The position numbers were made by a program, and so were the translations under genes. From Methylobacterium sp. J-030 (GTDB lineage Bacteria > Pseudomonadota > Alphaproteobacteria > Rhizobiales > Beijerinckiaceae), in the NCBI RefSeq assembly GCF_022829545.1, contig NZ_JAKSYM010000080.1, positions 60,124-124,123 of the forward strand: a stretch of DNA of 64,000 nucleotides, read 5' to 3'. Of the stretch, positions 31,917-34,264 are shown one piece after another. The notes beneath the pieces were generated by a model. The model was not told the DNA's origin. It did no database searches and saw nothing but the letters and a program-made list of their open reading frames with translations. Each line of letters opens with the position of its first letter. Within the stretch, counting starts at the first letter, position 1.

Positions 31917-32096
31917 CTACAGACGCGTCAGCCGCAGGTGCCAGGCCCCATTCTCGGGTGGCTGGGTCACAAACGTGTTTGGGATGGCAGGCTGGATCGG
32001 CGAGAGCGGCCCGATCACGGTCCGGTCGACCGGCTCGGCCTGCACCAGCGTGCAAGCCCCGAGAGCGAGCGCCAGCGGCCAAGCCACGAGCAGCAT
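31917..32096 (-). CDS. Small putative lipoprotein, 59 residues
   Basis: MLLVAWPLALALGACTLVQ is a lipobox signal (LALGAC, lipidated Cys at residue 15). The mature part contains DRTVIGPLSPIQPAIPN and ends HLRLTRL. It is below the length of most gene predictions. The ATG at 32096 was chosen because the hydrophobic segment starts there; the open frame continues upstream. It follows the coiled-coil genes on the same strand, at a distance of about 260 bases, and may share their transcript. Function unknown. Confidence 0.45.
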   Translation of the reverse strand: MLLVAWPLALALGACTLVQAEPVDRTVIGPLSPIQPAIPNTFVTQPPENGAWHLRLTRL

Positions 32097-32356
32097 GCGG
32101 AGCCATACACGGACGATGTCCGCCTGCGGCAAGCGTCGGTCGCAGCCCGAGCCGCGCCGGCCTTCCTGAGCGCTCGCCGCCGCAGCGGATACCGGGTCGG
32201 CGCCGGTGAGCGCGCGACGACACAGTCCCAGAACCACGCGCGATCGCATCGGGATCGGGCATGGCGCGGGCAACTGACTTCGTTGGCCCGTCGGCCGATG
32301 GCGCTGCGCTCCACGGCCAGGGAGGTTCACGGGTCCGACCCTCCGATAGGCACCCG

Positions 32357-32893
32357 TCAGGCTGCGGCCCGGCGCTCGCCCGGAACGAGATCCCGGCTCG
32401 CCTGCTCGATCCGCACCAGCCAGCCCTCGGCAGCCTCGGCGCGGCGCTCGGCGGCCTGGACCCGCGCCTCCATGGCCTGCAGCTTCGCGGCAGCCTCCGC
32501 CTGGACCTTTCCGATCTGCGCCTCGGCGCGGGCGCGGAGTTCGCCGGCCTTCGCGTCCGCCTGAACCTGAACCTCGCGCAGCAGCACCTCGAAGGCGCGG
32601 ACCTCCTGCTGCGAGCGCCTCAATTCCTGGAGCAGGGCATCCTGCTCGGCGGCCTGCTCGCGCAGGCGCGCCTCCTGCTGCTGGGCGGCACTCTTGGCGG
32701 CCGTCAGCGTGTCGAGCACGCCGGTCCAGTCCGAGGCCACCCGGCGCAGGGGCGCGGCGTCGCTGACCACGGCGATCGCCGGAGCCGCCTGCAAGGGAGC
32801 CGCCGGCGGCTTGTCCTGGCCGTCCTGCCGCTGCGCGACGATGTGCGCGTCGATGTTGGCCCAGAACGCCTCGTCCATCGCTGGCATCGCCAT
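32357..32893 (-). CDS. Coiled-coil protein C of a three-paralogue cluster
   Basis: A 178-residue protein, not recognised. A Trp-containing head (MDEAFWANIDAHI) and an Ala/Pro linker lead to a conserved block SDWTGVLDTLTAAKSAAQQQ (Trp56). A long, uninterrupted Ala/Glu/Arg/Gln coiled coil spans about 62-157, ending in the shared motif AERRAEAAEGWLVRIE (WLVRI, 158-162). There is no membrane segment or signal peptide. The same block-coil-WLxRI layout occurs in the two genes upstream, so these are paralogues. Annotation as SMC/TolA-like would only reflect composition. Confidence 0.85.
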   Translation of the reverse strand: MAMPAMDEAFWANIDAHIVAQRQDGQDKPPAAPLQAAPAIAVVSDAAPLRRVASDWTGVLDTLTAAKSAAQQQEARLREQAAEQDALLQELRRSQQEVRAFEVLLREVQVQADAKAGELRARAEAQIGKVQAEAAAKLQAMEARVQAAERRAEAAEGWLVRIEQASRDLVPGERRAAA

Positions 32894-33013
32894 TCCCTTC
32901 TGCCCCTACATGTCTCTGGACGGCGGTGCGCCGCGCGAGCCGCGGCGGATGTCTTCGTGCGCGTCGCCGGATTCGCGCCGTCTCCCGGGGATCGGGAGGC
33001 GGGCCAATCGGTC

Positions 33014-33469
33014 TCAGCGGCCTGCCACACCGATCCTGCGCGCAGCGGGCTCGACGACGAATTCCGACTCGATCGTGTCCGAGATCCGGCGCAGCCACTC
33101 TTCGGCGGATGCGGCGCGTTCCTCGGCGAGGCGGGCCCGGTCTTCCGAGGCCCGGATCAGCATCGCCGCCTGCGCCTGCACCGCGTCGGCGCGTTGCTCG
33201 GCGGCGCGGATCTTCGCGTCGGCATCGCGCAGGTCGGCCTGGACCTGCTCGACGAGGTCCTGAACGCGCAATTCATAGTCCTGCGCGCGATCCTCGACCT
33301 CGCGGATGTAGTGCGCCGCGCCGCGCACCCGATCGAGCAGGCTCGACCATTTCGCGGCGGTCGGCACCGATCCCAGGACGACGACGTTGGCATCGGACCT
33401 GACGGCGTCCGCGCCCGACACCGCCGCAGCGGCCACAGGGTCAGACTGAATGCGCGCTGACTGTTCCAT
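33014..33469 (-). CDS. Coiled-coil protein B of a three-paralogue cluster
   Basis: A 151-residue protein with a short head, the block TAAKWSSLLDRVRGAAHYIR (Trp41), a continuous coiled coil of about 80 residues (QVQADLRDADAKIRAAEQRA), and AEERAASAEEWLRRIS (WLRRI, 125-129). The tail is short and variable. It begins 48 bases after gene A stops. Cytoplasmic and filament- or scaffold-like by inference only. Confidence 0.85.
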   Translation of the reverse strand: MEQSARIQSDPVAAAAVSGADAVRSDANVVVLGSVPTAAKWSSLLDRVRGAAHYIREVEDRAQDYELRVQDLVEQVQADLRDADAKIRAAEQRADAVQAQAAMLIRASEDRARLAEERAASAEEWLRRISDTIESEFVVEPAARRIGVAGR

Positions 33470-33517
33470 GGTCGATCCTGAGGACGGGGCGGGAGCGATG
33501 GGTCCGGACGCTCGTCC

Positions 33518-34240
33518 TCAGCCTTCGGCCTGGATCTGAGCCATATGGCCGCCGAGCAGCAGCGTCTTCGCGGCCGCGTCGATCCGCGAGAGCCACTTCT
33601 CGGCGGTGTAGGCGCGGAGGTCGGCGACCCGCACCTGCTCCTCGGCCGCCCGGACCCAGGCCTCGGCTTCGGCCTGCAGGGTGCGCACCCGCGCTTCGGC
33701 CTCGGCCCGGATCTCCTCGACCTGGGCGTCCGCATCCGCCTGGACGCGCTGGAGGCGGATGTCGGCCCGCGTCTGGATCTCATGGGCCCGCATCTCGGAG
33801 AGCTGGAGCCGCTGCTGCGTCTCCTTCAGCTCCCGCTGCAGGGTCTCGATCAGCACCTCGTGGGACGCGCTCTGCTCCCGCAGACGCTTCTTCTGCTCGT
33901 CGGCGAGGCCGACCATCCCGTTGATGATGTCGAGGGTCGTCATCCAGTCCGAGACCGCGTCGGTCTGGGCTTCGGAGGACGCCGGGGCCGGGGCCTCCGT
34001 CTCGTCCGTCGCCGCGACGGGGACCGGCTCGGCATCGTTGACGGCCGGCTCCGGCATCACCGCGGAGGAGGCCTCCTCGGTGTCCAGGCTCAGGCGCAGC
34101 GCCGGCCCCTCGCCGAGACCGGAACTGGGTTTGAGCCTAAGGATCTCCGCCGAAGGCTTCTCGGAGATACGGTCCAGACTTTCCGCGACCTGCGTCAGAA
34201 TGTGGGACCAAGAGGCTGTGGGCGCCGCGATCATGCTCAT
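33518..34240 (-). CDS. Coiled-coil protein A of a three-paralogue cluster
   Basis: A 240-residue protein and the longest paralogue. The first 95 residues are an extra region: MSMIAAPTASWSHILTQVAE, then an acidic Pro/Ala linker. The shared block AVSDWMTTLDIINGMVGLAD (Trp99) follows, then a coiled coil with ADADAQVEEIRAEAEARVRT-like heptads, and ADLRAYTAEKWLSRID (WLSRI, 216-220). An alternative ATG at 34264 adds eight residues. It is the first gene of the cluster, downstream of an AT-rich 480-base intergenic region. Confidence 0.85.
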   Translation of the reverse strand: MSMIAAPTASWSHILTQVAESLDRISEKPSAEILRLKPSSGLGEGPALRLSLDTEEASSAVMPEPAVNDAEPVPVAATDETEAPAPASSEAQTDAVSDWMTTLDIINGMVGLADEQKKRLREQSASHEVLIETLQRELKETQQRLQLSEMRAHEIQTRADIRLQRVQADADAQVEEIRAEAEARVRTLQAEAEAWVRAAEEQVRVADLRAYTAEKWLSRIDAAAKTLLLGGHMAQIQAEG

Positions 34241-34264
34241 TGCTGCCTTTCCCGGGGCGAACAT

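What the first reader, a model, noticed from the sequence alone, without database searches (positions are those of the whole stretch)
31917..34264. Three paralogous coiled-coil proteins plus a lipoprotein: candidate undescribed system
Genes A, B and C share the same order: a Trp block ([SD/AK]W-x3-LD), a long uninterrupted coiled coil, and a terminal A-E-x-W-L-x-R-I motif (216-220, 125-129, 158-162). Only the heads and tails differ, so they arose by duplication and could co-assemble into hetero-filaments or a scaffold. A tiny lipoprotein on the same strand could tether such an assembly to the envelope. None matches a family I can name.
Basis: partly seen in the sequence, partly recalled or inferred. 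Interest (0 to 1): 0.8.

Follow-up and report, generated by a model that had tools for sequence, protein, structure and literature searches.

The report
Rod proteins kin to crescentin's neighbours
Three adjacent Methylobacterium genes encode related proteins, predicted to be coiled-coil rods with a nearly constant spacing between their end motifs, and some of their relatives lie directly beside the predicted gene for crescentin, a bacterial cell-shape filament, so they likely form an internal scaffold of a kind that our literature searches did not find described.

Summary
Genes A (33518-34264), B (33014-33469) and C (32357-32893), minus strand, are true paralogues: profile-profile scores 74-128, against at most 41.5 in reversed or block-shuffled controls. 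Among 111 Methylobacterium-genus genomes A occurs in 20; all 20 also carry B and C, in the order A-B-C at 19 of 22 A loci, with the small lipoprotein after C at 14 of those 19. Spacing between the two Trp motifs is near constant: 117 in A, 102 in C, mostly 84 in B.

New here: A, B and C belong to a wider family. One branch, D, lies directly downstream of crescentin (creS) at 38 of 38 loci found with Methylobacterium-type CreS, including 8 Aureimonas. In a small tree the trio's B is sister to B genes inside creS loci (support 0.90).

Against: the trio is never beside creS in the 13 A genomes that have it; 7 of 20 lack it; 19 of 27 other creS loci show no D.

Best reading: accessory cytoskeletal rods that likely co-assemble. 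The database label DivIVA fails, and a direct lipoprotein tether is topologically unlikely. Function is untested.

The parts
33518..34264 (-). Gene A, 248 aa (orthologues start at 34240 or 34234): N-terminal Trp helix (res 19-35), AEILRLKP motif, disordered linker, Trp block, long helix 97-247, AEKWLSRI
33914..33949 (-). Trp block of A (residues 106-117, DWMTTLDIINGM)
33581..33604 (-). AEKWLSRI end motif of A (residues 221-228)
33014..33469 (-). Gene B, 151 aa: NVVVL motif, Trp block, coil, AEEWLRRI, EF end; sister in the tree to B genes inside creS loci
33323..33352 (-). Trp block of B (residues 40-49, KWSSLLDRVR)
33083..33106 (-). AEEWLRRI end motif of B (residues 122-129)
32357..32893 (-). 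Gene C, 178 aa: N-terminal FWANID helix, linker, Trp block, helix 56-169, AEGWLVRI
32702..32731 (-). Trp block of C (residues 55-64, DWTGVLDTLT)
32408..32431 (-). AEGWLVRI end motif of C (residues 155-162)
31917..32096 (-). Small lipoprotein, 59 aa, lipobox LGAC, conserved end W[HR]LRL; follows C at 14 of 19 A-B-C loci

Best explanation
A, B and C are likely accessory cytoskeletal rods: three diverged copies of one short coiled-coil protein that are predicted to pair through their coils and dock through the Trp motifs at the two ends, giving a cytoplasmic scaffold of fixed dimensions. Shown: the three are homologous, travel together, and keep a near-constant distance between the two end motifs; close paralogues (D, and in some loci B itself) are neighbours of creS. 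Inferred: the crescentin-linked paralogues act on crescentin filaments, as capping, cross-linking or positioning subunits; A-B-C is a copy of that module that works without needing crescentin. In the tree A and C are sisters, B is the other subunit type, and B-C also occurs as a pair without A, so the likely core is a B+C hetero-pair to which A, with the longest rod and an extra N-terminal Trp helix, was added. The conserved 59-aa lipoprotein would act on the outer side of the inner membrane in the same envelope process, not as a direct tether.
For: Homology beyond heptads: hhalign scores A-C 127.7, B-D 91.3, A-B 74.9, B-C 73.8, A-D 64.8, B-E 61.2, C-D 60.9; controls at most 41.5; each family against the crescentin rod at most 1.4% probability. 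Co-occurrence: B and C in 20 of 20 A genomes, A-B-C in order at 19 of 22 A loci. Rod length: spacing A 117 in 41 of 41, C 102 in 33 of 33, B 84 in 23 of 26 proteins that matched the motif patterns; D 73 in 27 and 66 in 12 of 39 matched. B-family genes flank creS at 4 of 38 loci. The trio's B is sister to three of these (0.90). In 347 genomes of the order, 4 of the 6 with CreS over the cut-off have the family against 1 of 341 others. Among 111 genus genomes creS is in 13 of 20 with A and 24 of 91 without (p 0.0015, not corrected for kinship).
Against: At none of the 13 A genomes with creS is the trio beside it (different contig in 12, about 3.6 Mb apart in G026), and 7 of 20 A genomes have no CreS match, so the trio does not need crescentin. 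19 of 27 other creS loci show no D in the roughly 1.5 kb held (one of them, L272, has a second creS there), among them 9 of 9 of genus g431; two distant crescentins lack it too (L140, L141). Genome G331 has a pair of family members with no CreS over the cut-off. The 38-locus scan used CreS patterns from 12 Methylobacterium sequences, so it is biased to that CreS type. The third creS-operon protein E is tied in only through B (A-E 2.4%, C-E 74.4%, D-E 73.7%). No solved-structure match. Complexes could not be folded. C shows only a weak coil periodicity. The tree uses 82 columns.
Confidence: 0.5

Rival explanations
1. The family consists of small coiled-coil adaptors of some other process (regulation, stress, phage-derived), and the creS neighbourhood is operon hitch-hiking; A-B-C has nothing to do with a cytoskeleton.
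For: The trio is never next to creS and 7 of 20 A genomes lack creS; 15 of the 27 genomes with B-family matches have no CreS over the cut-off. In G006 a pair lies beside genes that look phage-like by eye, and single members lie near response-regulator-like genes (by eye).
Against: Direct adjacency to creS is kept at 38 of 38 Methylobacterium/Aureimonas-type loci and at loci of three further genera of the family sample (g412, g414, g416). Fixed rod spacing argues for a structural part. No match to the phage or plasmid collections.
Confidence: 0.28
2. A is a DivIVA-type polar or curvature-sensing scaffold, as database names say.
For: NCBI names several A homologues 'cell division protein DivIVA'; a weak DivIVA profile match to the coil.
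Against: DivIVA profile E 0.83, 10.1 bits against a cut-off of 28, covering only the coil; NCBIfam lists no DivIVA model for A.
Confidence: 0.07
3. One reading: A-B-C hetero-filament tethered to the envelope directly by the small lipoprotein.
For: The lipoprotein follows C at 14 of 19 A-B-C loci (11 of the 14 were not among the three seeds of its profile) and keeps its lipobox and W[HR]LRL end.
Against: Topology: cytoplasmic rods and an exported lipoprotein cannot touch without an inner-membrane partner, and I noticed none between them. The lipoprotein is missing by profile at 5 of 19 A-B-C loci and evolves fast (31-46% identity, little third-position excess). C and lipoprotein are 260 bases apart here.
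Confidence: 0.1
4. The three resemble each other only through generic heptad composition.
For: Reversed and shuffled coils still reach hhalign probabilities up to 82% and 79%, so part of any score is composition.
Against: Real scores for A-B, A-C and B-C are 74-128 against controls of at most 41.5, the crescentin coil gives at most 1.4%, and Trp, LD and WLxRI columns are invariant in the 12-sequence A/B/C alignment.
Confidence: 0.02

Closest known systems
Crescentin (CreS, Pfam PF19220 Rod_CreS), bacterial intermediate-filament-like protein
   Same: Long coiled coil; close paralogues of A, B and C (D, E, some B) lie beside it; both are restricted to Alphaproteobacteria in what was searched.
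   Different: A, B and C are 151-248 aa against about 500 aa, do not match PF19220, and show no profile similarity to the rod (at most 1.4%).
DivIVA (PF05103)
   Same: Short coiled-coil scaffold; database name of A homologues.
   Different: Below the cut-off (10.1 of 28 bits) and only over the coil.
PspA/IM30 (PF04012)
   Same: Best Pfam match of B, over its coil (E 0.00095).
   Different: 19.3 bits against a cut-off of 33.9.
PapS lipoprotein-porin curvature system of Rhodospirillum rubrum (PMC11369160, passages seen)
   Same: A lipoprotein that acts in cell curvature in an alphaproteobacterium.
   Different: PapS has an OmpA-like peptidoglycan-binding domain; the 59-aa lipoprotein here has no Pfam match, and no rod operon is described in the passages seen.
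FilP/Scy, bactofilins and other coiled-coil or accessory cytoskeletal proteins (recalled; no sequence test made)
   Same: Accessory polymers of the bacterial cytoskeleton.
   Different: Not compared by any search; bactofilins are beta-helical (recalled).

Membership tests
Crescentin (PF19220) | Match to the crescentin rod profile | tested here: not met
   PF19220 is absent from the Pfam lists of A, B and C at E up to 10; hhalign against CreS 0.4-1.1% for A, B, C
Crescentin (PF19220) | Forms nucleotide-free filaments and curves the cell | not testable with these tools
   needs biochemistry and imaging
DivIVA (PF05103) | Profile match over the curated cut-off | tested here: not met
   A: E 0.83, 10.1 bits against 28
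PspA/IM30 (PF04012) | Profile match over the curated cut-off | tested here: not met
   B: 19.3 bits against 33.9
Trp-block / AExWL rod family (defined here) | Profile homology among A, B, C and the creS-adjacent D | tested here: met
   six pairs at scores 60.9-127.7, controls at most 41.5
Trp-block / AExWL rod family (defined here) | Constant spacing between Trp block and AExWL within a subfamily | tested here: met
   A 41 of 41, C 33 of 33, B 23 of 26, D only 73 or 66 in 39 matched of 45; in two other lineages C is 91 instead of 102 and one B is 77
Trp-block / AExWL rod family (defined here) | Gene next to creS | tested here: not met
   not for A-B-C in any of the 13 genomes with both; met for D and for B-family members at 4 of 38 loci

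The most novel reading that the evidence does not exclude
Methylobacterium carries a second, crescentin-free intermediate-filament-like system: crescentin in these bacteria works with dedicated rod subunits (D, E or B) from its own operon, and A-B-C is a duplicated set of those subunits that has become a self-standing hetero-polymer whose unit lengths are set by the fixed rod spacing.
Probability: 0.22. Interest if true: 0.85.

Novelty: new variant of a known kind. Interest (0 to 1): 0.6.

Why it matters
Crescentin is the classic bacterial intermediate-filament-like protein, and dedicated partner proteins encoded with it are, as far as the searches made here show, not described. A gene kept directly downstream of creS at 38 of 38 Methylobacterium/Aureimonas-type loci is a concrete candidate for such a partner. 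If A-B-C is its free-standing descendant, it shows how a bacterial cytoskeletal accessory can be duplicated into a hetero-assembly, much as eukaryotic intermediate filaments diversified into obligate heteropolymers (comparison from general knowledge). It also corrects names such as DivIVA, EnvC and 'chromosome segregation ATPase' given to these proteins in databases.

Tried and rejected
Pfam, NCBIfam and PHROGs scans of A, B, C and the lipoprotein: nothing at a curated cut-off (PHROGs has no cut-off, best E 0.0088). PDB by sequence for A: best E 0.015, a designed protein; Foldseek of the A model: no match. Plasmid search with B and phage search with a B relative: no match. Promoter scan: none; one terminator-like site on the other strand, fewer than expected by chance. 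Rfam: only the tRNA-Gly. Hendecad (11-residue) periodicity was considered: peaks are 3.58 (A), 3.54 (B), 3.55 (D) and 3.51 (CreS); C peaks at 3.42 only just above shuffles, so no clean hendecad. The length steps relative to B's 84 (+33, +18, +7, -11, -18) fit sums of 7 and 11, but many integers do, so this is only a remark. Rejected: generic heptads; DivIVA; direct lipoprotein tether. A first impression that the family is confined to Methylobacterium was dropped.

Full report
WHAT IS THERE. The window lies in a genome of the genus that holds Methylobacterium phyllostachyos, M. longum and M. trifolii: unnamed handles of that genus have contigs of the same lengths as those named records. On the minus strand lie A (33518-34264), B (33014-33469), C (32357-32893) and a 59-aa lipoprotein (31917-32096), with gaps of 48, 120 and 260 bases. 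An antisense ORF (32261-33460 +) displaced B and C in my simple gene caller, so strand was tested: in 7 of 7 comparisons for each of A, B and C most substitutions fall on third positions of the minus-strand frame. The lipoprotein shows little of this (for example 27/23/28) and only 31-46% identity, but keeps its frame, lipobox and W[HR]LRL end.

ARE THEY PARALOGUES? BLASTP: A-C 6e-18, A-B 1e-7, B-C 0.001. Family alignments compared by hhalign score 127.7 (A-C), 74.9 (A-B) and 73.8 (B-C). Reversed partners score up to 41.5 and 20 seven-column block shuffles per pair up to 39.9. Control probabilities reached 82% and 79%, so probabilities alone would mislead. The crescentin rod, as an unrelated long coil, gives at most 1.4% against any of the families.

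DO THEY TRAVEL TOGETHER? In 111 genomes of the genus, 61 match the joint profile. A is present at 22 loci in 20 genomes. I fetched or already held all 22 and scanned them with profiles: 19 have A-B-C on one strand in this order; the other three (G002, G820, G824) have a lone A, and B-C as a pair elsewhere in the same genome. Two further genomes that I looked at (G771, G823) have the B-C pair, and one search shows no A in them. The lipoprotein profile, built from three of these loci, finds it after C at 14 of the 19 and near the lone A at 2 of 3 (weakly, E 6e-5 and 2e-4). It is not found at 5 of the 19.

SPACING. From the Trp of the Trp block to that of AExWL: 117 in 41 of 41 A proteins, 102 in 33 of 33 C, 84 in 23 of 26 B. 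Only proteins that matched the motif patterns were counted; others were dropped. More distant lineages break it by 11 (C of G021 and G002: 91) or 7 (B of G021: 77). D is 73 in 27 and 66 in 12 of 39 matched, with 6 of 45 unmatched by my pattern.

PREDICTED SHAPE. A: helix 19-35, disordered 36-96, one helix 97-247, mean pLDDT 75.4. C: helices 8-20 and 56-169, pLDDT 81.0. Foldseek against the PDB finds nothing for A. Only monomers could be folded, and B was not folded.

THE WIDER FAMILY AND CRESCENTIN. A profile of B and its relatives matches 27 of 61 relatives. One such locus, in G023, flanks a gene that matches the crescentin rod (PF19220, E 1.4e-114). Searching PF19220 in the same 61 genomes gives 12 over the cut-off, and in 12 of 12 a Trp-block/AExWL protein (D) is the next gene on the same strand, the window's own genome included (G000:C162; L132 10497-10994). 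A scan of named genomes with patterns from 12 Methylobacterium-genus CreS found 38 loci: 27 Methylobacterium or Methylorubrum, 8 Aureimonas, 3 other MAGs. 38 of 38 have D directly downstream (D profile E 1e-31 or better; median distance from the creS stop to the D open frame 33 bases). The gene after D is of the E type at 22, a second D-like at 8 (all Aureimonas), a B-family gene at 3, and unrecognised at 5. B-family genes occur within the 4-kb flanks at 4 of 38. In an 82-column tree the trio's B is sister to three creS-locus B genes (support 0.90), and A and C are sisters (0.82; 0.99 with the second gene of a B-type pair from G028). E joins the family only through B (B-E 96.0%; A-E 2.4%, C-E 74.4%, D-E 73.7%).

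LIMITS OF THE CRESCENTIN LINK. In the family-level sample 47 of 199 genomes carry CreS over the cut-off. At the 27 loci newly held, D is next to creS at 8: four of genus g416, two of g412, one of g414 and one that is the same record as L208. At 19 no D is seen in the roughly 1.5 kb available (nine of g431, three of g427, three of g31, two of g442, two of g409); at one of these, L272, a second creS occupies the space. In g416 and g412 diverged members without the Trp also stand upstream of creS. Two distant crescentins (L140, L141) lack D. Of 347 genomes of the order, 4 of 6 with CreS over the cut-off have the family, and 1 of 341 others (G331). Of 111 genus genomes, creS is in 13 of 20 with A and 24 of 91 without (Fisher p 0.0015, kinship ignored). 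In none of the 13 is the trio near creS, and 7 A genomes have no CreS match at all. In a class-level sample of 385 genomes only the window's own genome had CreS over the cut-off, so nothing can be said on Caulobacter neighbours.

MECHANISM. Shown: homology, co-occurrence, near-constant end-to-end spacing, creS adjacency of paralogues, synteny of the lipoprotein. Inferred: coils pair, Trp ends dock, D acts on crescentin, A-B-C forms a scaffold of its own. The lipoprotein is exported and the rods have no signal peptide or membrane helix (read from sequence), so a direct tether would need an inner-membrane partner; a shared envelope process is more likely.

LITERATURE. Full-text searches for Methylobacterium+DivIVA, crescentin+Methylobacterium, crescentin+operon+coiled coil+downstream, crescentin+Hyphomicrobiales, crescentin+interaction partner and others, Methylobacterium+cytoskelet+coiled-coil, and crescentin+Aureimonas listed no paper whose title or abstract start describes such genes. 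Passages were seen of PMC12700997 (crescentin-like proteins limited to Caulobacteraceae and Hyphomicrobiales; a Chelatococcus creS restores curvature in Caulobacter; the main text has no hit for Methylobacterium, Aureimonas or 'neighbor'), PMC4448529 (names Methylobacterium among crescentin holders), PMC11369160 (PapS) and PMC12750041 (unrelated). Subscription papers, preprints and supplements were not searched.

VERDICT. Observation confirmed; interpretation partly supported and extended. A new variant of a known kind (accessory coiled-coil cytoskeleton), interest 0.6. The plain next test is whether D sits on crescentin and whether A, B and C bind each other.

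Noticed in passing
32158-32269: A dispersed repeat between C and the lipoprotein gene: 12 other places in the own genome match it at 71-88% identity; it can fold into a strong hairpin.
   Followed up: partly
L132 8901-11475 (G000:C162): The window's own genome carries creS followed by D and E rods on another contig.
   Followed up: yes
L112 8687-9654 (G000:C291); L113 8826-9335 (G000:C132): Further family members in the own genome: an overlapping tandem pair, and a single gene next to a response-regulator-like gene (by eye).
   Followed up: partly
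L270 8458-9505 (G331): Two family members with no CreS-profile match in the 18-kb stretch, after genes that look by eye like a mitofilin-type coiled-coil protein and HemY.
   Followed up: no
L045 8769-9838 (G006:C49): A B-type gene and its partner lie beside genes that look phage-like by eye (lysozyme-like, tail-like).
   Followed up: no
L272 (G913:C22): Two creS genes in tandem in one genome of the family.
   Followed up: no
L293 (G871:C2): A creS reading frame interrupted by a stop codon, with D downstream.
   Followed up: no
L285-L288, L291, L298, upstream of creS: Diverged coiled-coil relatives that lack the Trp stand upstream of creS in genera g416 and g412, so creS lies between rod genes on both sides.
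   Followed up: partly
A, C and D homologues in databases: Automatic names such as 'cell division protein DivIVA', 'septal ring factor EnvC' and 'chromosome segregation ATPase' are spread over this family.
   Followed up: partly
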